Assembly (NCBI GenBank): GCA_022072085.1
Contig: JAJVII010000009.1
Location: 1 to 64,000, forward strand
Reading direction: 5' to 3'
DNA from: Phycisphaerae bacterium
GTDB taxonomy: Bacteria > Planctomycetota > Phycisphaerae > JAJVII01
DNA length: 64,000 bases
Below are positions 8,340-27,186 of the stretch, piece after piece. The notes under the pieces were generated by a model. It was not told where the DNA came from. It saw nothing but the letters and a program-made list of their open reading frames with translations, and made no database searches. Within the stretch, counting starts at the first letter, position 1. Each line of letters starts with the position of its first letter. The position numbers and the translations under genes were made by a program.

Positions 8340-10471
8340 ACAGCGCCGATTCGATTGCCGAACGCCGTCTTCTGGATCGGCTGGCCCCGGCGGCGATTGC
8401 CGAGGAGGATCCGATCCTCGGTTTGGTGGGGACAACCTACAACCTCCAGCCGGACTTCTTCGACACGGATTTCCTGCCAGCGATCTTGGGCTTGGGTGCC
8501 TGGGATGATCGCGGTTGGGCCACGCGAATAGCCATCGAGAACCGGCTCTCGCGAATGGAGGCGGCCACGATTTTCATGGAGCCTAATCGCTACGACGGAC
8601 GCCCCCGTTCCCTGCGGGTGGAGGTTCCGCCGGCGAGTGGGCTCGCTCGCCAGACGCTGCATGCGAAGGTCCTGATCGTTCTCCGTGAGCAGACAGTTCA
8701 GCTCGTCGTCGGCAGCGCCAACCTGAGCGAGTCGGGCTATCGCCATAACCGGGAGGTCGCGACATCGGTCACGGCATCGGCCAAGAGCCCTCAGCAGGCA
8801 CCGTTGATTCGATCCGCCATCGCCGGATTGCGAGAGCGGCTGAATGAACGCCTGACGGCGGGAGCCATTCTGGTGCTTGATCGCTGCAGCACGCTCTTGA
8901 ACGATTGGAGCCCCGGCGGTGGGGGAGATGACGGCGTTGACTTCTTGTGGGGCGGCGGGCCGATTCCGCTCTGGCAGGCGTTTCTGGATCGCTGGCCTCG
9001 GGACGAGAAGGCGCGGTCGATCACCGTCGTGTCCCCGTTCTGGTCCGAGGATGGTGAACGCGCCCCACTACGCCAACTGCTAGCGGAGATGTCGCGGCGT
9101 GGCGTTCTCGACGCCGAGGCGGCGGTGTATTTGGTGACGGATACGGACATTGACGCGCGGGGGGCGTACCGGCCGAAGTTGCCGCCCTCTTATGCCACGT
9201 GCGACCTATCCGCTTTTGGCGCAAGAGCCGTTGCCCAGGCCGCAGACCCGCGCGTGTCGGCGGAGGAAGTGGCCGGTCTGGAAGGTTTCCTCGGCCGACG
9301 TTGCCTGCACGCCAAAGTTCTGCTTCTGGAGGGGCCAACGAGCTCGCTAGCTTTCGCTGGCTCCGCGAATTTCACGCATAGCGGCTGGGGGCTGCTGGAT
9401 GATCCGACATCAGCCAACATCGAGGCCGGAATCGTCATTCTGCGGACGGGCCGAGGGCGGGGGGAGGTCCGCGACCTGATTCCAGCGCCGATAGGCGCGG
9501 TCGTCGAACTTGGCGACGGAACAGCCGGAGCGCTTGCGCCGCCCGATCCATCGCCCGCCGAAGCCCCGTGGCCGGATTTCATCCGGGAGATCGTCCTGGT
9601 TCCCCTGCCTGATCGCCAGGAGGAACTTTGCCTGATGGTCCGGGTGAACGCCGAGCAGGTCGCCGGACCATGGACGATAGCACTGCCGGCGAGAGGCGAT
9701 CTGCCCGCAAGGGCGCTGCTGGCGTCCACGGATCCGCCGACAGGACCGGCTGACGTATGGCGAGTTCCCCTCGGCCGCGAGACGTTGAATCAACTGCTCG
9801 TCGGGCAGGAAGTCTCCGTCTCCTGGTGGGCTTGGCAGCAAGGAAGGATGGTCCCGGTCAATGTCGACGCATCGGCCCGCGAGAGTCTGCCTATCAGTCC
9901 TGGCTCGCCTGACCTCCGGGAGGAACACCTGGTGGCCTATTACCAGGGACAAATTCGCTGGGAGGATCTGTTCCCCGACCCGGAGATGCCCCCGCCGACT
10001 GAAGTGCCGAGCGGGCAGACCCAGCTCGTGTCTGAAGTGGACACATCGAAAATCCAGTCGTACCAGATTCGCGAGTTCGTCGAGGCGATTTCAGGGATTC
10101 GGGCCGATCTGCGGGACGCCGTGCATTCGGAACCGGCGATGAAGCTGGCGGTGCTTGGGCCGGTGAGCCCGATCGCGTTGACAAGGACGATCATGGAGGC
10201 AGTCAAGGCTGGCTCGCGGACACCGATCGCCGCCGGTTTCCAACTCGTCGAGATTCTGGCTTGCATCGAATCGGCCCGCACACACGAAGTCCCTACTCGG
10301 CTGACAAAGGCGTGGGAGGTGGTCCTGGACAGGGCATCGGCGGAGATATGCCAGTTCCTGACACGGCTTCGCGATGAGCATAGTGAGGCGTTGCGGGCTA
10401 GTCGCATGTTCGACCGGTACGAGGCCGCTGTCCGCAAGTATTGTCGCGGTGGAGAAGGCAACCGTGATTAA
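8336..10471 (+). CDS. PLD-superfamily nuclease-like protein
   Basis: The 711-residue protein has two HxK phospholipase-D motifs, LHAKVLIV followed by VGSANLSESG (residues about 105-130) and LHAKVLLL followed by AGSANFTHSG (about 323-347). Two such half-sites make one active centre in this superfamily, which includes nucleases such as the DISARM component DrmC. The C-terminal 300 residues are of unknown function. It overlaps the preceding gene by ATGA, and the helicase start lies inside its last codons. The setting implies a nuclease cooperating with the following SNF2-type translocase. Confidence 0.85.
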   Translation: MNSADSIAERRLLDRLAPAAIAEEDPILGLVGTTYNLQPDFFDTDFLPAILGLGAWDDRGWATRIAIENRLSRMEAATIFMEPNRYDGRPRSLRVEVPPASGLARQTLHAKVLIVLREQTVQLVVGSANLSESGYRHNREVATSVTASAKSPQQAPLIRSAIAGLRERLNERLTAGAILVLDRCSTLLNDWSPGGGGDDGVDFLWGGGPIPLWQAFLDRWPRDEKARSITVVSPFWSEDGERAPLRQLLAEMSRRGVLDAEAAVYLVTDTDIDARGAYRPKLPPSYATCDLSAFGARAVAQAADPRVSAEEVAGLEGFLGRRCLHAKVLLLEGPTSSLAFAGSANFTHSGWGLLDDPTSANIEAGIVILRTGRGRGEVRDLIPAPIGAVVELGDGTAGALAPPDPSPAEAPWPDFIREIVLVPLPDRQEELCLMVRVNAEQVAGPWTIALPARGDLPARALLASTDPPTGPADVWRVPLGRETLNQLLVGQEVSVSWWAWQQGRMVPVNVDASARESLPISPGSPDLREEHLVAYYQGQIRWEDLFPDPEMPPPTEVPSGQTQLVSEVDTSKIQSYQIREFVEAISGIRADLRDAVHSEPAMKLAVLGPVSPIALTRTIMEAVKAGSRTPIAAGFQLVEILACIESARTHEVPTRLTKAWEVVLDRASAEICQFLTRLRDEHSEALRASRMFDRYEAAVRKYCRGGEGNRD

Positions 10472-13400
10472 CGTGTCACAGCAGTTCGATCTGGGTCTGG
10501 ATACCAGCCGCATCAAAGACCCGAACGACGCCCGGCGCCAGACGCGGACGACGGAGGAAGTCCTCCAGCGGTTCTTCCATCCGCGACCCGGCAAGCGCTT
10601 CGAACTCCAGGTGCTCGCCGACGAGGTCGGGATGGGCAAGACGTTCGTCGCGCTTGCCACGGCGTACTCGATCCTGGCCCATATGCGCGAGGGCCGCCCG
10701 GAGAGCGACCTGGACGGTTGCTACCAGAAGGTTCTGATTCTCACGCCAGCCAATTCGTCGCTGTTCAACAAATGGAACAAGGAGGTCGCTGAGTTCGTCC
10801 GCCGGTGCGTCTTGCCGCGGTATCGAGACGAAGCCACGTCCTGGTTCACCGCGAAGAAGGTGGAGCGACTCGACGAATTGGTGGCCGCGGTGCGCGGCGA
10901 CACGAAGAGACGGGTACTGCTGACGAACATGGCAATCCTTCGCGGCGCCGGCGGCAAGCTTCGTCACTACGACCTGAAACGGCGATTCATGCTGGGCGTC
11001 CTGTTTCGGTTCTGGGGGAATCGCCTCGGTCTGGACGAACGTGAGCGGCTGCTCAAGGGTGCCCCGGCCGACTGGCCCCGTGATCCACGGTGGCTGACGA
11101 AAGTGGAGTATTGGGAACAGGAACTACTGCCCTTCTCCGAGGACGAACTCCTTGCGGCTGTCGAGGCGTTCAATCGTCGATATGGGGACGTCGATAGCCT
11201 GCTCGATGTTTGCAGGGAAATCGCCCGGCCGTGGACCTGGAACCGCGAGGGCAAGTTCGACGCCAAGGGAATCGACAACAGGCTGATTCGCATCTATCGC
11301 TGGTCGGCCTATCAGTTGATTCGCCAGGCGTTCCCCTTGCTGATTGTTGATGAAGCGCACAATTGGAAAAATGGTCCGTCGGCGGGCACGAATGGCTTCA
11401 CGGAGTTTGCCGAGGATCTGGCGCCTCATGTCCGCCGAGCGCTGCTCCTGACGGCCACCCCGTTCCAGCTGCGGCCCGAGGAGATGCTGGAGATTCTTAA
11501 GGTTTCAGATCACATCATGCCATGCCCTACTCAGCAGGAGTCGGAAGCGAGGCGCAAACGTCTGGAGGATTTCAGGGAGCGGACCATTCGGCCCGTCCTC
11601 AAGAACTCGGAGCAGGCGAGCAAGGCGTTCACAAAGGCTTGGACGCGACTGCCGAGGAAGTTCAAGACGGAAGACTTGCTCGATGCCTGGATGATGCCCC
11701 AGGTCGAGGATGCGAGGGGGAAACTGCTTGAACTGGCTGACGAGCCAGGGGTCATAGGCGCCGGCGACCCGCGTTTTGAGAAGGCTATCACGACGGCTTT
11801 GGCCGGCATGGACCCCGACCTACGCCCGGTGATTCGGGAGGCGCTGGGCCTCTACGCCTTCAATACCGATCTGTCCCGCGAGATGGGCAGTCTCGTAATC
11901 CGGCATCGTCGCGGGACGGATCACCGATTGTTTCGGGTCGGCTGCGAGAGTGCCCTTCCGGCCGCGCGCGTGCTCGCTCGGCCGGATGCCCACCTGTTGC
12001 ACTACGCCCCGGGCTTGGACGTGCGTGGCGACGGAGAGCTGCCCCACTACATCCTCATGCGGTGCGTTTCGGAGATGAAGGGGGGCAAGGGCCGATCAAG
12101 TCTGGGCAGCGCCCTCACGGGCTGCTATTCGACACTTTTGCACAGCGCTGAAGGCCGCGATGTTCAGAAGCGGCTGAAGGATTCGGCGGTCGGTCGCGTC
12201 TATCTGGACCTGCTGATGAACATGGTCAGTGAGGACCAGGACGCCGATCACCCGAAACTCACCCGAGTAGTCCAATCAGTCCTGGAGAGATGGCGTGCCG
12301 GGGAAAAGGTGCTGATCTTCTGTTTTCGCGTCAACACGGCCGATAGGCTGCGAACCATTATCGACCAGCACATCCGCACGGAACTCAATGACCGGCGTAG
12401 GGCCTGCCTGGGGGGTGGGGATGCCCTACGGACGCTTCGCGCCCGTTTCACGGGCCGAGAACGGGATCTCATCGGCCTCGGCCTTGATCGTGTGCTCTGG
12501 TCCGCGATGTGGGCGGCAAGAGCCCGGCGCGAAGATGCGGGGCTTTTCGATCCGCGGCGGCTTCGCCTAACCGGTGACGACCTGAGGGGTCTGGCGCGTT
12601 TGTCGCTGTCATGTGGCATTGACTTGCGGGGAGAGAGGATCGACCGTGTGTTCCTTCACCGCGCCACGGAGTGCGTCCTGGCGAGGCGGTTGCTCCGCGA
12701 CGGCCCATCGGTCGGCTTCAACCATCGTCTGCTTGAGGAGGCGGCGCAGGAGGCGTGGGTGACTCATCCTTATGGCCTTCAATCAGAAGACCATGTCGAG
12801 GCCGAGGGTGAGACCCCAACCCAAGGCGATGGGGCCGCGGACCGCGCGGGTTTTGACGAACGTGGCGTTCACTTTGTTTACGACCCTCGGAGCGGCCGCT
12901 CGGGGGACGCGGATGCCCTGGCGGCGGACCTCGAGGCAACCCGGCAACGGGCACGCAGGCAAGGACAAGTCGCTTTGCTTGACGCCTACGCCGAGGCGCC
13001 AAGCCTCTGGCTCGGCACCAGACCGTCCGAACAGTGGGCTGCTCCTGATGAACGCCGGGCGGTGAGCATCGGGGCATTGCACGACCACCTGTGGGGACTT
13101 ACGGAACAAGGCGACGGGCACAATTGGACGACTCGGCTCATGGTTTTTCAGGCGCTGAGGCGAGCGTTGCTGCGCGAGTCAGTCCTGCTTCGGCTCCTGC
13201 CGGACAGGGCAGAGCGCGAGGAGAGCGGCTGGGGGGAACTCCTCGTGGATGCGTTTCATAGGGAGATGCTCGGCCAGAGAGAGAGCATGGCTGATCGAGT
13301 GGTCGTATTCGTCGAGGATATTCGGGCGGCAAGCGGCGACATACGCGAACCCGGCTCGGCGCGTTACGCGATCTACGATGCCACGCAGCTGCGAGACCAG

Positions 13401-13904
13401 CAGTTCGTGGCCGTGGCCAAGGGCGGCGGGGGTGACAAGTTCATCCAGGCTCGCGACCGCATATTCAATGGCTTCAACACACCGCTGCTGCCGGAAATCT
13501 TGATCTGCACCACGGTCGGCCAGGAGGGTATCGACCTCCACCGCCATTGTCGGCACGTGATCCATTACGATCTGGCGTGGAACCCGGCCACGTTGGAGCA
13601 GCGCACCGGCCGCGCTGATCGCATCGGCAGCAAGACGTTCCGCGAGCGATCCCTTGCTGCGGACGGCGCCAAGACCTTCCTGGAAATCGGGGTTCCGTTC
13701 CTAGCCGGCACGTACGACGAGCGCATGTACGAGGAACTGCGTCTGCGTGCCCAGACGTTTGAAGTGTTGACAGGCGGGGAATTCGCGGCCGAGCACGCCG
13801 AGGGCGACGACGACGAAGGTCGCGAGGGTCGGCTTTCGATCACACCCTTGCCGCAGGAAATGCTCCGCCAACTGCGGGTCGACCTACAGGTGTGGCGAGT
13901 ATAG
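10464..13904 (+). CDS. SNF2/HepA-like superfamily II helicase
   Basis: The protein has about 1146 residues. Walker A is DEVGMGKTF, motif II is VDEAHNWKNG, and the C-terminal helicase lobe contains WNPATLEQRTGRADRIGS, which is typical of SNF2/HepA translocases. A long insert between lobes (about residues 640-900) carries no known motif. The GTG start at 10464, with GGAG nine bases upstream and overlapping the PLD stop codon, is preferred over the longer open frame. The size and partner resemble the DISARM helicase DrmD, but DrmA, DrmB and a linked methylase are absent, so it is not a canonical DISARM. Confidence 0.88.
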   Translation: MINVSQQFDLGLDTSRIKDPNDARRQTRTTEEVLQRFFHPRPGKRFELQVLADEVGMGKTFVALATAYSILAHMREGRPESDLDGCYQKVLILTPANSSLFNKWNKEVAEFVRRCVLPRYRDEATSWFTAKKVERLDELVAAVRGDTKRRVLLTNMAILRGAGGKLRHYDLKRRFMLGVLFRFWGNRLGLDERERLLKGAPADWPRDPRWLTKVEYWEQELLPFSEDELLAAVEAFNRRYGDVDSLLDVCREIARPWTWNREGKFDAKGIDNRLIRIYRWSAYQLIRQAFPLLIVDEAHNWKNGPSAGTNGFTEFAEDLAPHVRRALLLTATPFQLRPEEMLEILKVSDHIMPCPTQQESEARRKRLEDFRERTIRPVLKNSEQASKAFTKAWTRLPRKFKTEDLLDAWMMPQVEDARGKLLELADEPGVIGAGDPRFEKAITTALAGMDPDLRPVIREALGLYAFNTDLSREMGSLVIRHRRGTDHRLFRVGCESALPAARVLARPDAHLLHYAPGLDVRGDGELPHYILMRCVSEMKGGKGRSSLGSALTGCYSTLLHSAEGRDVQKRLKDSAVGRVYLDLLMNMVSEDQDADHPKLTRVVQSVLERWRAGEKVLIFCFRVNTADRLRTIIDQHIRTELNDRRRACLGGGDALRTLRARFTGRERDLIGLGLDRVLWSAMWAARARREDAGLFDPRRLRLTGDDLRGLARLSLSCGIDLRGERIDRVFLHRATECVLARRLLRDGPSVGFNHRLLEEAAQEAWVTHPYGLQSEDHVEAEGETPTQGDGAADRAGFDERGVHFVYDPRSGRSGDADALAADLEATRQRARRQGQVALLDAYAEAPSLWLGTRPSEQWAAPDERRAVSIGALHDHLWGLTEQGDGHNWTTRLMVFQALRRALLRESVLLRLLPDRAEREESGWGELLVDAFHREMLGQRESMADRVVVFVEDIRAASGDIREPGSARYAIYDATQLRDQQFVAVAKGGGGDKFIQARDRIFNGFNTPLLPEILICTTVGQEGIDLHRHCRHVIHYDLAWNPATLEQRTGRADRIGSKTFRERSLAADGAKTFLEIGVPFLAGTYDERMYEELRLRAQTFEVLTGGEFAAEHAEGDDDEGREGRLSITPLPQEMLRQLRVDLQVWRV

Positions 13905-13979: not shown

Positions 13980-14396
13980 TCAATTCCGGCGAAGAAACGC
14001 CCGTATCCGATCGGCTACGTGGGGCATTTGCCTCGCCGTGGCCTGGCATTCCCAGATCACCAGCACGCGCCAACCCAGCCGGCGCAACGACAACATGTTC
14101 CGACGGTCGCGCCGGCGGTTCTCATCCAGTTTGCCACGCCAGAACGCAACTCGGCTCTTCGGAATCCGGTCGCCAAGGTCGCACTTGTGCCTGTGCCAGA
14201 AGCAGCCATGGACAAAGATGACCTTCCGTTGTTTGGGGAAGACAAGGTCGGGGCAGCCTGGAAGGCGGCGCACGTGGAGGCGATACCGGAAACCAAGAGA
14301 CCAAACGAGCCGCCGAACGGCGTACTCCGGCTGCGTGTCCTTCGACTTGATCAGAGACATTCGTCGGCTGCGCTCTTCACGACTGAGACTATCCAC
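13980..14396 (-). CDS. vsr: Very-short-patch repair endonuclease Vsr
   Basis: The 138-residue protein matches Vsr throughout: RRMSLIKSKDTQPE near the N-terminus, LPGCPDLVF, VHGCFWHRH and the C-terminal VLVIWEC. Vsr nicks 5' to the T in T:G mismatches made by deamination of 5-methylcytosine. The GTG start lies 1 base after the methylase stop codon, so the two are translationally coupled. The pairing protects the host against mutations caused by its own methylase. It is the last gene of the MORC-type restriction operon, and its 3' end faces the 3' end of the helicase operon. Confidence 0.93.
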   Translation of the reverse strand: MDSLSREERSRRMSLIKSKDTQPEYAVRRLVWSLGFRYRLHVRRLPGCPDLVFPKQRKVIFVHGCFWHRHKCDLGDRIPKSRVAFWRGKLDENRRRDRRNMLSLRRLGWRVLVIWECQATARQMPHVADRIRAFLRRN

Positions 14397-14397
14397 T

Positions 14398-15612
14398 TCA
14401 ACGCTTCCTCGTGGGATTGCAGGCGGCCTTGACGCGCATGGCCTCGACCAAGCGACCGACCACGATTTCGGCCAGTTCCACCGGAACGGCATTTCCTAGC
14501 TGTCGCATCGTTCCCGTCCATGTGCCCTCGAAGACCCAATCATCCGGGAACGTCTGAAGGCGAGCGCATTCCCTGACCGAAAAGTAACGCACGGAACTAT
14601 CGTCCAGCCTGACCATGTTCTCCCCGCCGGGAACGCCATGATCTCCCGCCTTCAGGGTCTTGGCCGGCCAATCCAAGACGGATCCCGTGTGCCCAGCATA
14701 AGCGCGGGCACCCGGGTTCAGGAAATGATTATCGATGGTTCTGGACGTCTGCCCGATGGCAATCCGCGGCAGACTGCTGATCGCATCCCGAACGGTCCGC
14801 CAAGCTCTTGGCAGCATCTTCCGGTCAAGGACGCGGAGTTTCTCGATTCGTCGCTTCAGTCTCGATGGCATCCTTGGCCGCAGCGATTTCGCTATGCCGT
14901 GTCGATCCCAGTACTCCCCAGAGACCCATTGGTCATAAAGAAGGCCATCCTCCGAATGGGTCGATGGGGGGTAGCTGAACTCCATGCCCAGGTCTGACCG
15001 CACGCCAACGATTAGAACCCGCTCTCGCCGTTGTGGCACACCATAGTCGGCCGAATCAAGGGCGGACGGCGACAGAATCTTGTAATGCAGGTCATCGTAG
15101 GTGTCCCCGGTATACAACCTCTCAAGTCGCGGAAGATGGTCCAACCACTCCTCGTCGCCCCGCGGGCCAACGAGCGGAAATCGCAACCGGTGCAGGATGT
15201 AGTTGTAGTACTTTAGGAAACTGCCGCGCAACAACCCCTTGACGTTCTCGAACACGAAGGCCTTCGGCATTATCTCGCGGACTGCGCGAATAGCCTCGGG
15301 GAACAAGTTCCTTTCGTCCTCATGCCCCGCGTGATTGCCGCCAAGAGAAAAGGGCTGGCATGGCGGCCCGCCACACACCACAGCGACCTTGCCTGCATGC
15401 TGCGCAAGATCATAGTCCTCAACCGAACCCTCCACTATCTCCCAGTCGCGTACGAACTTGACGCCATCCTGCTTGTTGCGGCGCAAGGTATCGCAGGCTC
15501 CGGCATCGCGCTCGATCGCCGCAACGTGGGCTAGGCCAGCCCTGGCGGCCCCAAGGGCTAGACCGCCCGCGCCGGCAAATAGCTCAATTGACGTGACCCC
15601 GTTGTCCGCCAT
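14398..15612 (-). CDS. DNA (cytosine-5-)-methyltransferase
   Basis: The 404-residue enzyme shows the C5-methylase motifs in order: motif I ELFAGAGGLALG (residues 10-21), motif IV GGPPCQPFS with the catalytic Cys, motif VI ENVKG, motif VIII QRRERV and the C-terminal motifs IX-X ending in RQLGNAVPV. The variable region between VIII and IX would set the target sequence, which cannot be read from the protein. It follows the 177-residue unknown gene by 17 bases and precedes Vsr. It would mark self DNA for the ATPase and helicase-nuclease encoded upstream. Confidence 0.95.
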   Translation of the reverse strand: MADNGVTSIELFAGAGGLALGAARAGLAHVAAIERDAGACDTLRRNKQDGVKFVRDWEIVEGSVEDYDLAQHAGKVAVVCGGPPCQPFSLGGNHAGHEDERNLFPEAIRAVREIMPKAFVFENVKGLLRGSFLKYYNYILHRLRFPLVGPRGDEEWLDHLPRLERLYTGDTYDDLHYKILSPSALDSADYGVPQRRERVLIVGVRSDLGMEFSYPPSTHSEDGLLYDQWVSGEYWDRHGIAKSLRPRMPSRLKRRIEKLRVLDRKMLPRAWRTVRDAISSLPRIAIGQTSRTIDNHFLNPGARAYAGHTGSVLDWPAKTLKAGDHGVPGGENMVRLDDSSVRYFSVRECARLQTFPDDWVFEGTWTGTMRQLGNAVPVELAEIVVGRLVEAMRVKAACNPTRKR

Positions 15613-15629
15613 GATTCCTCCACCTGCGG

Positions 15630-16163
15630 TTACGCCCCGTTGAGCCAGATCACCTTCTCGATCTTGAGCTTCTTGGCGGCATCCTCGACCATCTCGCGGA
15701 AGGGCCCCTCCTGCATGCGGCCGCCGGCATACATCAGAACCAGGCCAAAGGGCCTTGCCTTCGCCGCCAAGTGGGATCGCTCATGAACCGCCATGATCAG
15801 GTTCTTCCAGTTCGCGGCCAAGCCCCAGCAGAGGATTCTGCCGTCATCAAGTCGCAGGCCGTGTGGCTTTGTGTAGTTCTCCGCCGTCCCCGCCTCCAGT
15901 GGAATTCCCAAGGCCTTGCGCACCCGATTCGGATCCTCGAGGCGATCCAGCACATAGGGCTTCATGATCGTGTCTTTTATGTAGAGCCGGACATTCTGGT
16001 CGGGAATGTATCGGGAGATCACGCCGCCGATATCCCGGTCCCTGCTCCAGTTTTCGTAGTACTGCGTCTTCTGGCGGTCTGGCAACGTGGCCCACTTCAG
16101 GCCATCCGCCAGTGTCCAAAGCTTCTCACGCAGGCCGTCCAACACCGTGTCTGGTAGTTTCAT
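15630..16163 (-). CDS. Unknown 177-residue protein of the MORC restriction operon
   Basis: The gene overlaps the helicase-nuclease gene by ATGA and lies 17 bases before the methylase. The product has no membrane segment or recognised motif. It is rich in aromatic and charged residues (WATLPDRQKTQYYENWSRD near residue 24) and ends EKVIWLNGA. Position suggests a dedicated subunit of the restriction complex, for example a specificity or adaptor protein. This is inference from gene order alone. Confidence 0.65.
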   Translation of the reverse strand: MKLPDTVLDGLREKLWTLADGLKWATLPDRQKTQYYENWSRDRDIGGVISRYIPDQNVRLYIKDTIMKPYVLDRLEDPNRVRKALGIPLEAGTAENYTKPHGLRLDDGRILCWGLAANWKNLIMAVHERSHLAAKARPFGLVLMYAGGRMQEGPFREMVEDAAKKLKIEKVIWLNGA

Positions 16164-17845
16164 TGCACGCTTCCTGGTGGGGGAGCATCCGGATAGTCAA
16201 TCTCCGGAAGCTGAAGCTCCGCGTCGTCCTCCCGAAGAACCAACGACGACTGATCAAGTATCCATTCCTTGAGGAAGCTCCCCGCCGATTGATCGCCAAA
16301 CGACACCAATCGCCCGCCGAGGCCGACGCGCTCCACATCGTCGCCCCTGATGGCCTTATCCAACTCCAAGACCTCCGCGACGCGCCTCAAGTCGGTGACG
16401 AAATCCAGAACCACGACCTTGTCCTTGTCGCGACTGAATCGCAGCCCGCGTCCGAGTTGTTGTACGAAGATTCGGCGGCTATGCGTGACCCGCATGAAGA
16501 TAATCAGGTCCACATCCGGAACATCGACGCCTTCATTGAACAGGTCGACCGTGACGACGATGTCGAGGCGGCCCGAGCGAAACTGCGACATCAACTTGTC
16601 CCGAGTCCGTGGCGGAGTCTCAAATAGAATCACTTCGGCCCGGAATCCATATTGACGAAGCGTTCCGGCGAATGATTTCGCGTGGGCCCCCGATGGGCTA
16701 TAGACGATGGCGCAATGGCGTTTCTCGCCATCGAAGACCTGGCGGACGAGGCGAGCCGCCATGTCATCCCGCGTCGGGATGATCAGCTTGCGGTTGAGCT
16801 GGGAAATCGAGTACTTGTTCCGTGATCGCTGCTGGACGAATTCCCAGTCAATGTTGTCGGCCAGGAGCCGGTAGTCCACCTCGGCCAGGAAACCCTTGGC
16901 TAGGCCCTCGGCAACTCCCAGCCGGACGAGCGCCGGTCCAAAAATGCGATCAATATCGTAGGCGTCTCCGCGCCAAGGCGTGGCCGTGACTCCCGCCAGC
17001 ATCCTAGGCCGCAGGGCGGCGATGGCCTGCAAGAAGGTTTCGGCGCCAGCATGATGGGCCTCATCAACCACGACAAGCCCGAACTGCGGAAGATGCTCTA
17101 GGCGCTGCGTGACACTCTGAATGGTGGCGAAGGTGATGCCATCCCAATACGTGGGCGTCTCGCCCTCGGCAAGTCGGTGAGTGTGGACCCAGCGGGGCAG
17201 CTGGAACCAGAACGCCTGCTGCAACTGGTTGACCAGCGTGACGGTGTGCGCGAGCACGAGAATACGCCCATGCTCCACCCGGTTGTCCCTGAGCAAATCG
17301 GCAACGGTCTCGGCCATGACAACCGTCTTGCCTAGGCCCGTCGCCATCACGATCTGGCCGCGCCCAGTATCGAGCAAGGCCTCCCGCAAACGCGTCGACG
17401 CGTCCTCTTGATAGTCCCTCAGCGTTCGGCGGGCGGGCGCGTACTCCGGGGTCGCCTGCATCCAATTGATAAGAACCGCCGGAACAGCCAGATCGATCTT
17501 CAACCCCAGTCTCTCGTATCGGCTCTTTTCCCTGAGTAGCCCATCCGATGGGGGGCGAGAGCACGCGATGACCAGCTTTTCGGCGTCGTAGAACTCGGCG
17601 GCATTGACAATCTCCTCCACGGCGGAGCTTGGCGGCGGAGAAGCTGTTGTGTGCTTGCACTGAACGACCCAGATCTCGCCTCCACGGGCGGCGAGGATGT
17701 CGGCACCGTGATCACCGGTCCCGGCAACAAGGCGGACGTCCTGGAATCCGTTGGCCAGGAGAAGCCGCGCAACATCCCGCTCGAATGCCTGCCAGGGGCC
17801 ATTCAGCAGTCGGTCGCGTCCCAGGAAGCCGCTATCCTCGATCAC
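16160..17845 (-). CDS. Mrr-like nuclease fused to a DEAD/DEAH helicase
   Basis: The 561-residue protein has an N-terminal Mrr/REase-fold domain (GDHGADILA, then WVVQCKH, residues about 44-65) that supplies the Asp and QxK catalytic residues of this nuclease class. It is followed by a superfamily II helicase: Walker A MATGLGKT, motif II VVDEAHH, motif III TATPWRG and motif VI QQLGRGLR. It overlaps the ATPase gene upstream and the small gene downstream by ATGA at both ends. Known relatives act as the cutting and translocating subunit of restriction systems. Confidence 0.92.
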   Translation of the reverse strand: MIEDSGFLGRDRLLNGPWQAFERDVARLLLANGFQDVRLVAGTGDHGADILAARGGEIWVVQCKHTTASPPPSSAVEEIVNAAEFYDAEKLVIACSRPPSDGLLREKSRYERLGLKIDLAVPAVLINWMQATPEYAPARRTLRDYQEDASTRLREALLDTGRGQIVMATGLGKTVVMAETVADLLRDNRVEHGRILVLAHTVTLVNQLQQAFWFQLPRWVHTHRLAEGETPTYWDGITFATIQSVTQRLEHLPQFGLVVVDEAHHAGAETFLQAIAALRPRMLAGVTATPWRGDAYDIDRIFGPALVRLGVAEGLAKGFLAEVDYRLLADNIDWEFVQQRSRNKYSISQLNRKLIIPTRDDMAARLVRQVFDGEKRHCAIVYSPSGAHAKSFAGTLRQYGFRAEVILFETPPRTRDKLMSQFRSGRLDIVVTVDLFNEGVDVPDVDLIIFMRVTHSRRIFVQQLGRGLRFSRDKDKVVVLDFVTDLRRVAEVLELDKAIRGDDVERVGLGGRLVSFGDQSAGSFLKEWILDQSSLVLREDDAELQLPEIDYPDAPPPGSVQ

Positions 17846-20181
17846 TCCGCATCTCCCGATCCCGAGGCGGGCGCGAGCATGTCCACGGCGAGCGCGGCAC
17901 GCATTACACGTTCCCGGCTGGCATCGTTAAGCTCGTCCGATGACCGCGCGGCCAGCCAAGTGGCGTCGCTGAGCAGCGCCGAGTAATCACCCACCAATCT
18001 CCTCCACGCCATCTCCGTAGCGCCCTGGCTGCCGAAGTCTAGCGATGCATATCGCTCGTCCCAGTACTTGCCATCAAAGAACAACTCCGGATGACTCTGG
18101 AAGAACTCTAGTAATGTCGCCCACGAGGCGTATTCAAGAAACCGACCCTGATCGATTGCCGCCTGCGGGTCGGAGACCGCCTTGGCGGCCATGCGACGCT
18201 GAATCTCCTCCTGCTCACTAGGCGACAAGGCATTGAACAGTGTGCGCCCATCCCCAGGCGAGAGATTGGCCTTCAGGCTCTTTGCCACCCGCGTCAAGGC
18301 CATTCCCGCCTCACTGGACAGCGTGACGGGATCAAGTTCGTTGACGCCACCGTACTTGCCCCGCAAGCTCGCGAGGATTGCCGCGAAGGAATGGCCGCTG
18401 CCGCTATCACGTTCAAAGTCCATCGCCGACCATGCCAACTGCGCCAAGAGGCCATCCAGAGGCGTCATGGTCATCGACCGGAATACTGGATGCCTGGCGT
18501 TCACCAGAAACTCGTAGTAACCTTGAGTTGAACGGCCGAACCCCCAAGGGCTATCCGCAGTGCCCAATCCTACGTCGGAGGATTCCACATCGAAGGCCCG
18601 CACATCCCATCGTTGGTTTGTCAGGTCGTCCCTGTACTCCTGTGTAAGCGATGCAATTGGCTGGCGCGTGGGAGGTTGCGGCGCTGATGGCGAAGGAGTC
18701 GGTCCTCCGGGCCCTTCGGGCGATGGCGTTTCCGGCGCTGCCGGGGACAGCGGCCCCAGGCCGCCTCCATCCGTATCCGGCGGGGTGAGAAGAACGTTGT
18801 CTGCTTCCTGCACGAGCGCCCACCAGGGCTCATCCGTTTGCCACTCCGCCTCGCCTGCGTAGAACCGCTTCGCCATTTGCGAGGCGCGATCGTTATCGGG
18901 AACAATGAGCAGTTTCGCGTAGCACCCCGCGACCTTTGGCTTCGGGCTTGACCTCCTGAAGCACTGAAAGAGCTTCGACAGCGGGGACGTATTCACCGGA
19001 AGGCCCGCCTGCTGCGCCTTGTCCGGCCTGAGCGGCCCCTCGCCACGCACCACCTTCACCATGTCTTCCCACGCGGGGTCCTCTCGCTCAAATCGGTCCT
19101 TTGTGTAGCTGACTCGGCAGTGGTCGAGATGAATCTCGCCGACGATTCTTCCTCGGTTCCGGGGGTCGTCGATTGGATACTCAAGTTCCTGGGATTCGCC
19201 GTTGTCCCAGTAGAACAAGTCCTTGTTGCCGAGTTCGAGTTTTCGGCCATTGCGGATGAAGTCGATGCCATAGCCTTCCTGGCTCAAATACCGCTGGATG
19301 CCAAGCCAACCGTGAATGTGTCTGTCTCGCATCACGAGCGCGCCGACTGCCCCGCAGATCGGGCAAGCGTCGCTCATCTGCGTCAGCCACTGCCAACACC
19401 GTTGACAGAACGGTCGGCTGGGCAGATGCGTATCGACGGGTTGAATCGCGCTCAGGATTCCGTGGCGGGAAGACTCGACCGTTCTACCGGCACCCCAAGC
19501 GCAGTGATTGCGAGGAGCCACGATGCGACCGTTTAGATAAAGCCGGAACGTCATCGGTTGACCATCCTGGCGGAGCATCGCCGAATACACTTGGCCCAGT
19601 ACCTGGGTCAACTGCGTTCGGTTCGACGCCCTGGCGAACCATTGCGACTGCTCTGGCTTCAACCTCAGGATGGAGACCTCGACGCCGCTCTCGGTGGAAT
19701 CCGGTTTCGGCCGGGTGAGTTCAGGTGTCCGGAAACTGCCCTGCCGAATCAGTTTCTCGAAATCTATTTCCAGCCCGCGCCATTGCCCGTCGCCCTTCTG
19801 CGTTGCCCAGACTTGCGTGACCAGCCCGAGCCGAGCAGTGGCGATATTGAATCCCATGCCGAACAGGCCCAGGTGCCGGATGGGATCGTTGCTGGTCCAG
19901 CCCGCACGGACCGCCTTCTCCAATGATTCGCGGCTCATGCCCGGGCCATTGTCGCGGACCGAGATCCGTGATTGCTCTATGTCCGCGGTGGGCACCGTAA
20001 CGTGAACTTCCGGCTCGGCGCAGGGGTTGCCGCCTCGCTGGCAGCGGAGGAATCCATCGATGGCATTGTCAACAAGCTCCGCTAGGCACCGCCACTGACG
20101 CAGGTTGATTTCGCCGAGCATCGGAAGGATTCTTGGGTCGGGCTGGAGGTCGAAGTCAGGCCCCATGTTCTGTTCCGCCAT
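17842..20181 (-). CDS. MORC/Hsp90-type GHKL ATPase of a restriction system
   Basis: The 779-residue protein opens with a GHKL ATPase fold: N-box LAELVDNAIDGF, G1 motif RDNGPGMS and G2 motif LFGMGFNIATARLG, all within the first 140 residues. The rest holds a second ATPase-associated lobe, a CPIC/CQRC pair that could bind zinc (near 255-280), and a long C-terminal region after a Pro-rich linker. Prokaryotic MORC-like ATPases linked to C5-methylases and helicase-nucleases were described by comparative genomics as ancestral to eukaryotic MORC. The ATG at 20181 has AGGAG eight bases upstream and is first in a five-gene operon. Confidence 0.88.
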   Translation of the reverse strand: MAEQNMGPDFDLQPDPRILPMLGEINLRQWRCLAELVDNAIDGFLRCQRGGNPCAEPEVHVTVPTADIEQSRISVRDNGPGMSRESLEKAVRAGWTSNDPIRHLGLFGMGFNIATARLGLVTQVWATQKGDGQWRGLEIDFEKLIRQGSFRTPELTRPKPDSTESGVEVSILRLKPEQSQWFARASNRTQLTQVLGQVYSAMLRQDGQPMTFRLYLNGRIVAPRNHCAWGAGRTVESSRHGILSAIQPVDTHLPSRPFCQRCWQWLTQMSDACPICGAVGALVMRDRHIHGWLGIQRYLSQEGYGIDFIRNGRKLELGNKDLFYWDNGESQELEYPIDDPRNRGRIVGEIHLDHCRVSYTKDRFEREDPAWEDMVKVVRGEGPLRPDKAQQAGLPVNTSPLSKLFQCFRRSSPKPKVAGCYAKLLIVPDNDRASQMAKRFYAGEAEWQTDEPWWALVQEADNVLLTPPDTDGGGLGPLSPAAPETPSPEGPGGPTPSPSAPQPPTRQPIASLTQEYRDDLTNQRWDVRAFDVESSDVGLGTADSPWGFGRSTQGYYEFLVNARHPVFRSMTMTPLDGLLAQLAWSAMDFERDSGSGHSFAAILASLRGKYGGVNELDPVTLSSEAGMALTRVAKSLKANLSPGDGRTLFNALSPSEQEEIQRRMAAKAVSDPQAAIDQGRFLEYASWATLLEFFQSHPELFFDGKYWDERYASLDFGSQGATEMAWRRLVGDYSALLSDATWLAARSSDELNDASRERVMRAALAVDMLAPASGSGDAE

Positions 20182-20429: not shown

Positions 20430-21227
20430 CTAGGATCGCAATGCCGGCAGTTCCACGTCCTCATCGCGGTAGCCCTGCCACGCACGCAAAAGGTCATGCG
20501 TCCAGTAGGTGTTCGGCTGGCCGTGCTTCCGTGGGCTCGCCAGCGGCGGCATGGTCACTGTCTTGTGCCGAGCAGCGGCCAACAAAGCTCGCTTTCGATA
20601 CATGCGGTAATCCTTCTTCTTCGCCTCGCAAAACCGGGCCATGAAGGCATCTACCGTGATCGGCTCGTTCGGCACGTCCGGCCATTGCGCTGCCTGGGGC
20701 GAGGCGGCTGGCGAGCCGGGCCTGTCGATGGGGGCGTCATCAGCCATCCTGCATCCCACCGAGCCTCGCCCCGGCTGCTTTGGCCGTTCAGACGATCCGG
20801 TCGACTGCCGCCGGGCCTCCAGCGCGTTCATCGCCTCGGTCACGGCGACCTCAACAGTTCTGGTCTGGTCCCAGAGGTCCTTGGCCAGGAAGAAGGTCAG
20901 GCCGTCGTTCTGAAAGTCTCCCGCGAAATTCCACGCCTCGACGGTATGGCTGGTCATGATGATGATCGCAACCTTGCCCACGCCCTTGATCTTGAGGATC
21001 TGCTGGAACAGGCTCACGCCGTTCTGGATACGGGGGTCCCCGCCGCGACTGGAAGCCGGAATCCGCAGGTCCAGCAGCACATAATCAAAGTCCTTGGTCG
21101 CCAGCAGCTTGCGGGCGTCCTCGTTATTGCCGGCCACTTCGAACTTGTGCTGGAGCGAGTGCTCGAGGATTTCGCCGACGTACTCCAGGACGTCCTTCTT
21201 GTCATCCACCACCAGAGCTCGCGGCAT
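20430..21227 (-). CDS. Response regulator, REC domain with novel C-terminus
   Basis: The 265-residue protein begins MPRALVVDDKKDV. The acidic pair is at 8-9, the phospho-acceptor Asp is in YVLLDLRIP near residue 49, and the conserved Lys is in FFLAKD. After a Pro-rich linker the C-terminal 80 residues (DAFMARFCEAKKKDYRMYRK onward) match no output domain I know. They include a basic segment and LLRAWQGYRDED, which could be a small winged-helix or protein-binding module. The start overlaps the kinase gene, and GGAGG sits 5 bases before the ATG at 21227. It is the last gene of the ATPase-kinase-regulator set. Confidence 0.85.
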   Translation of the reverse strand: MPRALVVDDKKDVLEYVGEILEHSLQHKFEVAGNNEDARKLLATKDFDYVLLDLRIPASSRGGDPRIQNGVSLFQQILKIKGVGKVAIIIMTSHTVEAWNFAGDFQNDGLTFFLAKDLWDQTRTVEVAVTEAMNALEARRQSTGSSERPKQPGRGSVGCRMADDAPIDRPGSPAASPQAAQWPDVPNEPITVDAFMARFCEAKKKDYRMYRKRALLAAARHKTVTMPPLASPRKHGQPNTYWTHDLLRAWQGYRDEDVELPALRS

Positions 21228-22374
21228 GGCCTCCTCCACTGATTGTTCGAGGCAGGACGATGGTCATGGTCGTGCCCTCTCCGGGGGCACTGGCCGCGAC
21301 CAGTTCACCGTCATGAATCTCCACGTAGTTGCGGGCGATCACCAATCCGAAGCCCGACCCGCCGTCCTTGGTCGTCCGCCCGGGCGTGAACAGTTCGTTG
21401 AGTTCGGCAGGCTCCAAGCCCGGGCCGTTGTCCTCGATCACTATCGCCACTTCGCCGGCGTTGATGGCCTTTCCGGTCAGGACCACATGCGGCTGAGAAG
21501 CCATCGCCGCCGCGTCGAAAGCGTTGGACAGGACGTTGAAGATTGCCCGCTCCAGTTGCGGCTCTGTGACGTAGACGACCAGCCCCTGCTGCACGTCCAC
21601 GTCGAGGTCGACCCGCGACCAACCGGGTTTCGATGTCGCCAGGTCGGCAATCCGGGCGGCTGCCGAGTGGACCAGCCCATCCAGTGATCTGACGGACGGG
21701 CGGGTGGGCGTGGCCCGCGACCGGGCATACTCCAGCATCTGCTGGACGAGGTAGCTGTAGCGCCCCAGGATGCCGCCGACCTTCTCCAGCGACGCGAACG
21801 CTGTAGCCGGATCATACTCGCCATTGAGGATCGCCTGGCGCAAGGCGGCGACCCGGCCCTGAAGAACACTCAGATCGTTCTTCATCTCGTGGGCCAGATT
21901 GCTCGCCAGGGCCATGTGGTAGGTCTCGCCTATCCGCATCGCCGTCCTGGCGACCTCATCGCCGTGGCGTTCCCTCAGGTGCTGGTATAGCTCCAGCACC
22001 AGGTCGATCCCCTGAAGCTTCTGCCTGAGTGCCGATTTCACCTTGCGGCGGCGGTTTCGGCTGACCTCCGCCGCCCGGCTTACGAAGGCGTTGGGGTCCT
22101 GGCGGAGCTTAGCCGCCAGCGGCTCGAAGTCGCCTTGGCGCACGTAGTGCAAACCGTCGGCGATTGCCTTCCGCACTTCCCACTTCGGGTCGTCGGCCAG
22201 CAGGTTCAGCAGCGGGACCATCACCGCCTCGCGGTCAACGACCCCGCCGGCCCGGAAGACGGCCATCAACTGCCTGGCACAGGCGAGCCGGTCCAACCAG
22301 GGCAGTGCCTCCCGGTCGGCGGTCAACAGACGCAGCGATTCCGGCAGGTTGAGGATTTCAGCTTCGGTATCCAT
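21202..22374 (-). CDS. Soluble histidine kinase with HEAT-like repeats
   Basis: The 390-residue kinase has no transmembrane segment. Residues about 25-115 form helical HEAT-like repeats (VPLLNLLADDPKWEVRKAIADG and the following FEPLAAKLRQDPNAFV). The phospho-acceptor box NLAHEMKND has its His near 162, and the HATPase domain has N-box NVLSNAFDAA, G1 EDNGPGL and G2 GSGFGLVIA. Its ATG shares two bases with the ATPase stop codon (TGATG), and its end overlaps the regulator start. A cytoplasmic sensor coupled to an SMC-like ATPase would read an internal signal such as DNA damage or ATPase state. Confidence 0.88.
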   Translation of the reverse strand: MDTEAEILNLPESLRLLTADREALPWLDRLACARQLMAVFRAGGVVDREAVMVPLLNLLADDPKWEVRKAIADGLHYVRQGDFEPLAAKLRQDPNAFVSRAAEVSRNRRRKVKSALRQKLQGIDLVLELYQHLRERHGDEVARTAMRIGETYHMALASNLAHEMKNDLSVLQGRVAALRQAILNGEYDPATAFASLEKVGGILGRYSYLVQQMLEYARSRATPTRPSVRSLDGLVHSAAARIADLATSKPGWSRVDLDVDVQQGLVVYVTEPQLERAIFNVLSNAFDAAAMASQPHVVLTGKAINAGEVAIVIEDNGPGLEPAELNELFTPGRTTKDGGSGFGLVIARNYVEIHDGELVAASAPGEGTTMTIVLPRTISGGGHAASSGGG

Positions 22375-24257
22375 CAGATCCGGTATCGCTCCTTGCGCTT
22401 CATGAAGGCTTCCTGCCCGCCCTCCAGCAGCCCGATGATCTCTTCGCGGCATTCGTCCACCGTGCCTTCCCTGGCCTTGACCGCCCTCGCGCCATTGGAC
22501 CGCAGAACAAAGACCCGCTCGGCATCGCCCAGCACCGGGATGTTGGGGTTGTGCGTCACGAACAGCATCTGGCGGCGGCCCTTGGCCTTGCGGATGCAGT
22601 CAACCACCGTGTCGTAGATGAACCCGTTGTCCAGGTTGTCCTCGGGCTGGTCGATCAGCAGCGGGTTGTCGCTGTCCAGCAGCAGGATCGGCAGGATCGT
22701 GGTGCATTTCTGGCCGGTGGACAGGGACGTCGAATCCTTGTACTCCTCGCCGTCGAGCAGCTCGATCCGCGGCTTGTCGTCCAGTTCGATGGTCTCCAGG
22801 CGGAACATCATCTTCGGGCCGGCGAACGCCGCCACCACGTTGCTGGCCTGGTTGGGGTTGAGCGTCGCCCGCTCGATCATCGACTTGGTATCGCCGGCGG
22901 CGACCATCGCGGCCAGTTCACCGGGCGAGAGGTTGTCGGCGACCTTCTGGGCCACGATGTTCCGGTTGACGCCCGCGCCGGCCAGGGCCTCCAGGAGCAG
23001 TTCCCGGTACCGCGACGGGTCGCCGAACTGGGCAACGCTGACCCGTATCCGGGGTGCCAGCCGGTCGGTGATACGGGCGGCAACCTTGCGGCGGAAGGCG
23101 AACCGCTCATCCCGCAGCGACGAGAGCTGACCGAGCAGCTCAGCGCGCTCCTTCTGGAGACGCTGGAGGGACTCGGTGTGCTCATCCCGGACCCGCTTCT
23201 TCTCCAGCAACTGGTTCCGCAATGTCTCCAGCCGGATCCGTTCGGCCTCCTGCCCCTTGGCCTGATCGTGGCGGGCCAGTTGCTCGCGGAAGGCCAGTTC
23301 CTGCTCGGCCTGGCTGGTCGCCAGTTCCCCGCCGATCTCCGCCAACCGGTCCTGGGCCCGGACGATGCGGTTGCGGGCATCCTCGATCAGCCGATCAACA
23401 TCGCCGGAGCAGGCGGCCAGTTCGTCGCGGATCTGCTGGAGGAGATGTCCGTTCGGCCCGGCGAGCATCTCGCTGCTGAAGGCCGCCGACACCCGCTTGG
23501 CGATCCCGCCGACGAGGCCATCCAAGGAGCCGGCGAAGGCGTTCAGTGCCTCGTCGGCGGCGGTCGCCGCCCGGCGCTCGCGGTCGCGCATTGAGTTGAG
23601 TTTGTGGGCCTGGTTCAGGGAGGCCGAGCCGTCGCCGTTCCTGGCCGCCAACGCCTTGAGCTTGTCCTGGATGCCCGGCAGGGTGCTCAGTTCATCGCCC
23701 ACGCTGTCCAGCGCCTTGCGCACATCGATGATCTTGCCCCCGTTGGCCGAGAGCCTGGCCTCCACCTTCCGAATCGCCGCGTTCACCCGCTGGACATCGT
23801 CCGGGACGAAGTTGTCGATCAGGGACAACTGCGAGCCGGGGTCGTCGGCGATGCCTTCAATGTCGTTCTGGCTGTAGATGTCGGCGCGGAACACGCCGCC
23901 GTTGGCCAGGGTCACCTCGCTGGGGCTGCCGGAGGCGTCCATCACGATGGCCGCGCCCCCCGCCGTACGGTCGACCACGTATTCGATGCCGTCCCTGGTC
24001 TCGATCCGCAGGCGAATCCGGCCCGCGCCCAGGTTATCGGTGACCAGGGAGTCGAGCCGCTTCTGCACGCCCGCGGCCTGTTTGCCGGCGGACGAGTCCA
24101 GTGCATGCCGGACGTATTCCAGGGCGGTCGTCTTGCCGGCGCCCCGGGGGCCGATCAGGCAGTTGAGGCCCTCGGCCAAGTCGATCTCCAGGCCGTCCAG
24201 GAAGCCCCCGACGACCGACAGCGATTTCAGCTTGTGGCACTTCTTCCCATTGTTCAC
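22374..24257 (-). CDS. SMC/RecF-like coiled-coil ABC ATPase
   Basis: The 627-residue protein has an N-terminal ATPase half with Walker A GPRGAGKTT (residues 36-44) and a central region with coiled-coil character (about 180-370, heptads rich in Glu, Arg and Leu). The C-terminal half has the signature SLSTGQKC, Walker B PLLIDQPEDNLDN and switch His FVTHN. This is the SMC/RecN/RecF plan, seen in many defence ATPases. The frame stays open upstream to 24761, but the GTG at 24257, with AGGAG seven bases upstream, is clearly the start. It leads directly into the kinase gene. Confidence 0.88.
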   Translation of the reverse strand: MNNGKKCHKLKSLSVVGGFLDGLEIDLAEGLNCLIGPRGAGKTTALEYVRHALDSSAGKQAAGVQKRLDSLVTDNLGAGRIRLRIETRDGIEYVVDRTAGGAAIVMDASGSPSEVTLANGGVFRADIYSQNDIEGIADDPGSQLSLIDNFVPDDVQRVNAAIRKVEARLSANGGKIIDVRKALDSVGDELSTLPGIQDKLKALAARNGDGSASLNQAHKLNSMRDRERRAATAADEALNAFAGSLDGLVGGIAKRVSAAFSSEMLAGPNGHLLQQIRDELAACSGDVDRLIEDARNRIVRAQDRLAEIGGELATSQAEQELAFREQLARHDQAKGQEAERIRLETLRNQLLEKKRVRDEHTESLQRLQKERAELLGQLSSLRDERFAFRRKVAARITDRLAPRIRVSVAQFGDPSRYRELLLEALAGAGVNRNIVAQKVADNLSPGELAAMVAAGDTKSMIERATLNPNQASNVVAAFAGPKMMFRLETIELDDKPRIELLDGEEYKDSTSLSTGQKCTTILPILLLDSDNPLLIDQPEDNLDNGFIYDTVVDCIRKAKGRRQMLFVTHNPNIPVLGDAERVFVLRSNGARAVKAREGTVDECREEIIGLLEGGQEAFMKRKERYRI

Positions 24258-24306
24258 TGATCTTCTCCTGAACAGATTGAAACGGGTTGTTCCTTGACGA
24301 CGAAAT

Positions 24307-24504: not shown

Positions 24505-24546
24505 TCCATGTTGCCGTGCCTCCGTGCACGAGGGATTCGAGCACGC

Positions 24547-25584: not shown

Positions 25585-25594
25585 GGGCATCTCC

Positions 25595-26011: not shown

Positions 26012-26069
26012 GTTCTCTCCGTCACCGCCCCAAGACAGCGGCCTTCTGAAGACAAGTATCCGACAGGGG

Positions 26070-26091: not shown

Positions 26092-26095
26092 GTCG

Positions 26096-27106: not shown

Positions 27107-27186
27107 GGTGTCCTCCTCGGCGGGGGTGTTCACGGGCGGCGATGGCCGCCTCTATCTACCCGCCAAGAACAACACTACAGGAGGGC

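What the first reader, a model, noticed from the sequence alone, without database searches (positions are those of the whole stretch)
13980..20181. MORC-type ATPase restriction operon with Vsr
A GHKL ATPase of MORC type, an Mrr-helicase fusion, an unknown 177-residue protein, a C5-methylase and Vsr are overlapped or nearly so in one operon. The MORC-methylase-helicase link is known from comparative genomics, but few such loci have been tested, and the 177-residue partner is uncharacterised. Vsr at the end implies that the methylase target is deamination-prone CG-rich DNA.
Basis: partly seen in the sequence, partly recalled or inferred. Interest (0 to 1): 0.7.

Follow-up and report, generated by a model that had tools for sequence, protein, structure and literature searches.

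The report
MORC-ATPase restriction-modification operon, predicted CCGCGG
This is a five-gene bacterial DNA self/non-self operon of a kind predicted in 2008 but, as far as I could find, never tested: a methylase that probably marks the cell's own CCGCGG-type sites, plus an ATP-driven cutting machine built around a relative of the human MORC chromatin proteins and a small helper protein that relatives show to be part of the machine.

Summary
Five minus-strand genes (20181-13980) are near-overlapping: MORC ATPase, Mrr-nuclease/SF2-helicase fusion, a 177-aa protein (u177), a C5 methylase and Vsr. The kind was predicted by Iyer, Abhiman and Aravind in 2008 (MORC + Rad25-like helicase fused to a nuclease + cytosine methylase + Vsr), so this is a new member of a known kind.

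What I add: (1) MORC-helicase-u177 is a co-evolving triad (distance correlation 0.94-0.96, against 0.64-0.67 with the methylase). It is present in 38 of 38 u177-seeded loci. In an independent MORC-seeded scan u177 follows the helicase in 10 of 13 testable loci. (2) The methylase target region is 60% identical to both M.Eco29kI (CCGCGG, second C) and M.DrdVII (YCGCGR). M.DrdVII is the methylase of the related Deinococcus plasmid locus. Half of the relatives also carry an Eco29kI-type nuclease; the window and its genome do not. (3) u177 folds confidently in silico. Its C-terminal half weakly resembles restriction-endonuclease folds, but no catalytic motif is recognisable.

Best reading: an ATP-dependent restriction module acting on DNA unmethylated at CCGCGG/YCGCGR, with Vsr repairing deaminated sites. 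Restriction itself is untested. The upstream two-component pair is not part of the system.

The parts
17842..20181 (-). MORC-type GHKL + S5 ATPase, 779 aa, with a Cys cluster (CxxC...C) in the S5 region and a helical C-terminal domain
   Evidence: HATPase_c_3 2.7e-10; GHKL motifs E35-D38-N39, DNGPGM, GLFGMGF conserved in 27 homologues; MORC3 is the best PDB sequence match; predicted fold matches SMCHD1 Z 17.4 over 312 residues
20190..20194 (-). AGGAG ribosome-binding site, 8 nt before the MORC ATG
   Evidence: sequence read directly
16160..17845 (-). Mrr-type nuclease fused to an SF2 helicase motor (RadD/SauUSI-like), 561 aa
   Evidence: Mrr_cat 1.2e-12, ResIII 3.2e-25, Helicase_C 1.5e-16; RadD 127 bits; PDB best 7clg (SauUSI) and 6jde (RadD)
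17561..17797 (-). Mrr_cat nuclease domain (residues 17-95), active-site D49...Q62-x-K64 invariant in 21 homologues
15630..16163 (-). 177-aa third subunit of the triad (u177): N-terminal helical part, C-terminal half with a restriction-endonuclease-like topology but no PD-(D/E)XK motif
   Evidence: no family hit; 32 homologues; AlphaFold pLDDT 92.5; fold matches
14398..15612 (-). C5-cytosine DNA methyltransferase, 404 aa, all motifs present, predicted target CCGCGG or YCGCGR
   Evidence: PF00145 2.5e-56; 47% identity to M.Eco29kI and to the pDrdI methylase (M.DrdVII) overall, 60% in the target-recognition region
14578..14727 (-). target-recognition region of the methylase (NHFLNPGAR...GHTGS..D.PAKTLKAGDHGVPGGEN), shared by nearly all relatives
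13980..14396 (-). Vsr mismatch endonuclease, 138 aa from GTG 14396; PD and HGCFWH active-site motifs present
   Evidence: TIGR00632 142 bits, PF03852 9e-30; alignment with 16 homologues

Best explanation
The operon is an ATP-dependent restriction-modification system. Shown by sequence: a three-gene machine (MORC ATPase clamp, Mrr-nuclease/helicase motor, u177) that evolves as one unit, linked to a C5 methylase of the Eco29kI/DrdVII type and to Vsr. Inferred: the methylase puts 5mC on the cell's own CCGCGG (or YCGCGR) sites, probably at the second C. The triad attacks incoming DNA in which those sites are unmethylated. In it the MORC dimer closes around DNA as an ATP-gated clamp, the helicase moves along the DNA and the Mrr domain cuts. 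u177 is the structural or DNA-contacting adaptor between MORC and helicase and is probably not a nuclease itself. Vsr nicks T:G mismatches left when the 5mC deaminates. In half of the relatives a separate Eco29kI-type nuclease also cuts the same site; here it is absent, so the triad would be the only restriction activity.
For: Triad contiguity and order in 38/38 u177-seeded loci. MORC-seeded viral scan: helicase follows in 14/14 testable loci and u177 in 10/13. Plasmid tblastn with the helicase: 4/4 records carry u177 next to it. Triad distances correlate at 0.94-0.96, against 0.64-0.67 with the methylase. Nuclease, helicase and GHKL active sites are invariant. A C5 methylase lies within the flank in 36/38 and Vsr in 32/38. 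The methylase recognition region is 60% identical to M.Eco29kI and M.DrdVII; Eco29kI is CCGCGG with second-C 5mC (PMC3039593); M.DrdVII is YCGCGR 5mC (PMC6430315) and is the only C5 methylase on pDrdI, beside the triad. Eco29kI-type nuclease in 19/38 loci plus 5 weak, none in this genome.
Against: No restriction, ATPase or cleavage was measured by anyone in what I could search. In half of the relatives a Type II nuclease is present, so the triad could be an accessory rather than the restrictor. No DNA-recognition domain was identified in the triad, so how it would find unmethylated CCGCGG is unknown. Mrr domains and the SauUSI-like motor are known from modification-dependent enzymes, which work the other way round. 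In three distant loci u177 is replaced by unrelated ORFs.
Confidence: 0.55

Rival explanations
1. The triad is an accessory to a Type II system: an Eco29kI-type nuclease makes the first cut and the MORC-helicase-Mrr machine then loads and degrades the DNA. In this window the nuclease is lost and the operon is a leftover with a solitary methylase.
For: Eco29kI-type nuclease in 19/38 relatives plus 5 weak, typically beside the methylase; none in the window genome.
Against: At least 14/38 relatives, including those with intact triads, lack the nuclease; all five reading frames in the window are intact and the active sites conserved, which is not expected of a leftover.
Confidence: 0.17
2. The triad is modification-dependent (Type IV-like): the Mrr-helicase attacks DNA carrying foreign modifications, and the methylase/Vsr pair has another role such as marking or epigenetic regulation.
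For: Best PDB match of the motor is SauUSI, a 5mC-dependent enzyme; best PADLOC motor hit is mREase_IV; the nuclease is Mrr-type.
Against: No SRA or other 5mC-reading domain was found; a 5mC-dependent cutter next to an active 5mC methylase would need to exclude its own mark; RadD and Type I HsdR motors match almost as well.
Confidence: 0.12
3. Non-restrictive function: the MORC machine compacts or silences incoming DNA at unmethylated sites, as eukaryotic MORCs compact chromatin, with the Mrr domain used only rarely.
For: Closest solved relatives are MORC3/MORC4/SMCHD1, which remodel rather than cut.
Against: The Mrr catalytic residues D49, Q62 and K64 are invariant in 21 homologues, arguing that cutting matters.
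Confidence: 0.08
4. The operon is larger and regulated by the two-component pair just upstream (RR 20430-21239, HK 21202-22452), as in the HEF_HK/Response_reg_2 loci of Bellieny-Rabelo et al. 2021.
For: Same strand, about 250 nt between the RR stop and the MORC start; a published link of two-component-like genes with C5 methylases (PMC8011034).
Against: RR and HK match the ordinary PF00072 and HATPase/HisKA families, not PF19192/PF19191; none of the 38 relatives has a matching RR, and only one has a 25-bit HK match.
Confidence: 0.05

Closest known systems
MORC/SF2-helicase restriction-modification operons predicted by Iyer, Abhiman and Aravind 2008 (PMC2292703)
   Same: MORC GHKL+S5 ATPase, Rad25/ResIII-like helicase fused to a restriction-fold nuclease, cytosine methylase and Vsr in one operon
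   Different: The u177 subunit, the triad's co-evolution, the CCGCGG-type target and the optional Eco29kI-type nuclease are not in the parts of that paper that I read
Deinococcus wulumuqiensis 479 pDrdI locus with M.DrdVII (PMC6430315)
   Same: Same order methylase-MORC-helicase-u177; methylase recognition region 60% identical; 5mC at YCGCGR reported for this strain
   Different: No Vsr in its flank; 29% identity in u177, 47% in helicase; its restriction activity was not reported in the paper read
Eco29kI Type II system (pECO29, CCGCGG; PMC3039593)
   Same: C5 methylase, 47% identical overall and 60% in the recognition region
   Different: Eco29kI restricts with one GIY-YIG enzyme; no MORC, helicase, u177 or Vsr on its 3.9-kb plasmid annotation
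SauUSI (PMC7913695) and RadD
   Same: SF2 motor is the closest of solved structures
   Different: SauUSI has an SRA domain that reads 5mC; here an N-terminal Mrr domain and no SRA
CglI/NgoAVII ATP-dependent restriction (PMC5737866)
   Same: Works like: separate nuclease and SF2 ATPase subunits that need ATP hydrolysis to cut
   Different: Its nuclease is B3-PLD and its motor DEAD-Z1; no MORC or u177
MZA system (MzaB)
   Same: A GHKL ATPase in a defence operon; weak NCBIfam hit to MzaB, 18 bits
   Different: Far below the 850-bit cut-off; no other MZA component found here

Membership tests
Prokaryotic MORC family (Iyer et al. 2008) | GHKL ATP-binding motifs intact | tested here: met
   ELxDN, DNGPGM and GLFGMGF invariant or nearly so in 27 homologues
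Prokaryotic MORC family (Iyer et al. 2008) | S5-fold domain after the GHKL domain | tested here: met
   Predicted model residues 15-411 align to the SMCHD1 ATPase module, Z 17.4, 4.2 A over 312 residues; MORC3/4 among top Foldseek hits
Prokaryotic MORC family (Iyer et al. 2008) | GhXhhpXXRhl motif in the S5 domain that separates MORC from paraMORC | tested here: inconclusive
   GIDFIRNGRKL at residues 305-315 fits 10 of 11 positions, with K where a hydrophobic residue is asked for; best PDB sequence match is MORC3
MORC restriction-modification operon, class with Rad25-like helicase | SF2 helicase fused to an RE-fold nuclease next to MORC | tested here: met
   Mrr_cat + ResIII + Helicase_C in one ORF overlapping MORC by 4 nt
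MORC restriction-modification operon, class with Rad25-like helicase | cytosine methylase and Vsr in the neighbourhood | tested here: met
MORC restriction-modification operon, class with Rad25-like helicase | restricts unmodified DNA | not testable with these tools
   needs cloning and phage plating
Eco29kI/DrdVII-type C5 methylases (CCGCGG, YCGCGR) | C5 methylase motifs and shared target-recognition region | tested here: met
   47% overall, 60% over the recognition region to both characterised enzymes
Eco29kI/DrdVII-type C5 methylases (CCGCGG, YCGCGR) | 5mC at CCGCGG or YCGCGR in the host | not testable with these tools
   needs methylome; the genome has three other C5 methylases to separate
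Eco29kI Type II restriction-modification system | GIY-YIG Eco29kI-type nuclease present | tested here: not met
   PF09517 not found in the host genome nor in window ORFs
Vsr | TIGR00632/PF03852 over cut-off, active-site PD and HGCFWH | tested here: met
Type IV SauUSI-like enzymes | 5mC-reading SRA domain | tested here: not met
   no such domain in Pfam/NCBIfam scans; only about 75 residues follow the motor
PD-(D/E)XK nuclease (for u177) | RE-like fold | tested here: inconclusive
   C-terminal half matches NucS/EndoMS Z 5.8-6.0, CdiA-CT Z 5.8-6.5 and EcoT38I Z 5.2, all under 8; no Foldseek hit under 0.001
PD-(D/E)XK nuclease (for u177) | acidic residue plus (D/E/Q)XK at the active site | tested here: not met
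   no such motif among invariant columns; KPHG and W113 lie at the matching hairpin
HEF_HK/Response_reg_2 two-component loci (PMC8011034) | PF19191/PF19192 genes linked | tested here: not met
   upstream RR and HK hit PF00072 and PF02518/PF00512 instead; no RR in relatives
CglI/NgoAVII | Z1 motor domain and B3-PLD nuclease | tested here: not met
   no such domains in the five proteins

The most novel reading that the evidence does not exclude
MORC, Mrr-helicase and u177 form one obligate complex: a new architecture of ATP-dependent restriction enzyme in which a MORC clamp is loaded at an unmethylated CCGCGG/YCGCGR site by u177 (a restriction-fold domain that has lost its catalytic residues and kept DNA reading) and licenses the translocating nuclease. 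It would give a prokaryotic MORC its first biochemical role and an ancestral model for methylation-linked DNA compaction by eukaryotic MORCs.
Probability: 0.3. Interest if true: 0.75.

Novelty: new member of a known kind. Interest (0 to 1): 0.42.

Why it matters
Prokaryotic MORC ATPases were linked to restriction by comparative genomics in 2008, yet I found no functional test of this kind in the library searched. Here the open question becomes directly testable. The methylation target is predicted (CCGCGG/YCGCGR) from two characterised relatives. The minimal machine is defined by co-evolution as three genes. A sequenced, NEB-curated relative (Deinococcus wulumuqiensis 479, pDrdI) already has a reported 5mC motif. 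A result would say whether MORC proteins act as DNA clamps that license a nuclease according to methylation state.

Tried and rejected
u177 against Pfam, NCBIfam, PADLOC, PHROGs and PDB sequences: only weak RCC1/BLIP-II-like hits through the short LxDGRxIxWG stretch, judged spurious because the predicted fold is not a propeller. u177 profile against the Vsr profile: no relation. Viral structure library: nothing significant. u177 as a specificity subunit tracking the methylase: not supported; u177 distances follow MORC and helicase (0.94) much more than the methylase (0.67), and the Rhodococcus locus keeps the same methylase recognition region with a very divergent u177. Two-component genes as part of the operon: rejected. 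Helicase-seeded scan of the host phylum gave only unrelated motors about 1000 aa long; the u177-seeded scan gave one partial hit besides the window's own genome in 392 genomes, so the locus is rare there and was probably acquired. Centring a scan on Alphaproteobacteria was not possible.

Full report
1. Observation. Five minus-strand genes lie end to end between 20181 and 13980. The MORC gene starts at ATG 20181, 8 nt after AGGAG. MORC/helicase and helicase/177-aa genes overlap by 4 nt each, the methylase starts 17 nt later, and the most likely Vsr start is GTG 14396, one nt after the methylase stop, where homologues also begin. The listed ORFs that extend further upstream (818 aa for MORC, 170 aa for Vsr) are longer than the homologues. 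A convergent helicase gene ends at 13904.

2. The proteins. The ATPase has intact GHKL motifs. MORC3 is its only PDB sequence match at 1e-5. The predicted model (mean pLDDT 78) matches SMCHD1 (Z 17.4, 4.2 A, 312 residues) and MORC3/MORC4 as well as Hsp90-family proteins. It fits the MORC-specific S5 motif of Iyer et al. at 10 of 11 positions. The helicase carries an N-terminal Mrr domain with D49 and Q62-x-K64 invariant in 21 homologues, and a motor closest to SauUSI and RadD. The methylase has all C5 motifs, and Vsr has its active-site motifs.

3. Relatives. A 177-aa seeded search gave 3 plasmid loci and 35 genome loci, mostly Alphaproteobacteria, also Burkholderiales, Deinococcus and scattered others. 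MORC, helicase and u177 occur in that order in all 38. A C5 methylase lies in the flank of 36 and Vsr in 32, in several orders and orientations, so these two are modular. Because that search was seeded on u177, I repeated it from the other side. A MORC-seeded scan of viral contigs gave 15 loci: the helicase follows in all 14 testable, u177 in 10 of 13 testable, and unrelated ORFs of 191 or 254 aa take its place in three. Of four plasmids with the helicase, all have u177 next to it, including a distant Rhodococcus case. Pairwise distances among 33 non-redundant loci correlate at 0.94-0.96 (Spearman) within the triad and 0.64-0.67 between the triad and the methylase. The triad is therefore the unit, and the methylase is a partner.

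4. Methylation target. The plasmid pDrdI carries exactly one C5 methylase, which lies immediately before the MORC gene. The methylome paper assigns 5mC at YCGCGR to M.DrdVII on pDrdI (PMC6430315), and an independent MspJI study detects YCGCGR methylation in a Deinococcus sample (PMC8112702). M.Eco29kI (pECO29) methylates the second C of CCGCGG (PMC3039593). The window methylase is 47% identical to each overall and 60% over the region between motifs VIII and IX that sets specificity in this family. Almost all relatives share this region; some distant viral loci have a different one. In addition, 19 of 38 relatives carry an Eco29kI-type GIY-YIG nuclease, and 5 more a weakly matching one. The predicted target is therefore CCGCGG or YCGCGR. 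This is inference from homology, not a measurement. The host genome has three other C5 methylases and no Eco29kI-type nuclease.

5. The 177-aa protein. A 32-sequence alignment gives a confident model (pLDDT 92.5): an N-terminal helical part (residues 5-75) and a C-terminal part with strands 93-97, 101-105, 109-115, helix 116-132, strand 137-144, helix 153-165, strand 170-174. Foldseek gives nothing significant. The second look lists several restriction-endonuclease-fold proteins at the top for residues 73-177 (CdiA-CT 6.5, NucS 6.0, EndoMS 5.8, EcoT38I 5.2), all below the level at which such matches can be trusted. The conserved hairpin reads KPHG...DGR.I.W where the acidic and (D/E)XK residues would be, so a working PD-(D/E)XK site is unlikely. 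I take it as a non-catalytic subunit with a possible DNA-facing restriction fold; this is inference.

6. Mechanism. Best supported: an ATP-dependent restriction-modification system whose machine is the triad and whose self-mark is 5mC at CCGCGG/YCGCGR, with Vsr repairing deaminated marks. Steps shown: gene content, order, intact active sites, co-evolution, similarity of the methylase to enzymes of known specificity. Steps inferred: clamp loading by MORC, translocation and cutting by the Mrr-helicase, adaptor role of u177, discrimination by methylation, and antiphage function. The main rivals are an accessory role to an Eco29kI-type nuclease now missing here, and a modification-dependent (Type IV-like) mode suggested by the Mrr domain and the SauUSI-like motor.

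7. Known or new. The class was described by Iyer, Abhiman and Aravind (PMC2292703): MORC with a Rad25-like helicase fused to a restriction-fold nuclease, cytosine methylases and Vsr. This operon is a member of that class. The upstream two-component pair does not match the HEF_HK/Response_reg_2 domains reported near C5 methylases (PMC8011034) and is not conserved with the operon. Literature searches found no functional test of such a prokaryotic MORC operon, within an open-access library only.

Noticed in passing
window 6227-13904 (+): A second defence-like operon runs convergently into the MORC operon: two unknown proteins, a PLD protein with a ZacB match (PDLC03829, 67 bits) and a SNF2-type helicase with PDC-M27C/ZacC matches. 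It looks like an Azaca-like or PDC-M27-like system.
   Followed up: partly
window 20430-22452 (-): Response regulator and HEAT-repeat histidine kinase directly upstream of MORC on the same strand; the RR also matches the SduA N-terminus and PDC-M60C models. Not conserved with the MORC operon.
   Followed up: partly
window 22374-27133 (-): Cluster of a TrlF-like AAA ATPase without the N-terminal part of the TrlF model (its ORF overlaps the ARPP-1 gene in another frame; likely start near 24266), an ARPP-1 protein, a HIRAN protein (PDC-M03B match) and a YbjN-domain protein.
   Followed up: partly
L002-L037, just after u177 (for example L007:9507-10649): A PIN_8-domain protein follows u177 in 23 of the related loci but is absent from the window: a possible fourth, optional component.
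   Followed up: partly
L015:4005-4802, L016:4150-4914 and eight others (-): A 220-300-aa protein family without Pfam, PADLOC or PHROG match sits just upstream of MORC on the opposite strand in 10 loci; possibly a regulator.
   Followed up: partly
L059:11005-11577, L066 and L067:11240-12001: In three viral-contig loci u177 is replaced by unrelated ORFs of 191 or 254 aa right after the helicase; L066/L067 also have a different methylase recognition region.
   Followed up: partly
L004:11176-14913: On pDrdI the MORC operon lies next to a CBASS-like set (nucleotidyltransferase, E2/UBC, Mov34/MPN, SAVED).
   Followed up: no
window 4112-5848 (-): Transposase-like ORF with an rve integrase core next to the defence genes; tyrosine integrases lie in 11 of the related loci.
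   Followed up: no
genome G000 contigs C7:147064, C15:116315, C50:2800: Three further C5 methylases in the host genome, which any methylome test must separate from the window enzyme.
   Followed up: no
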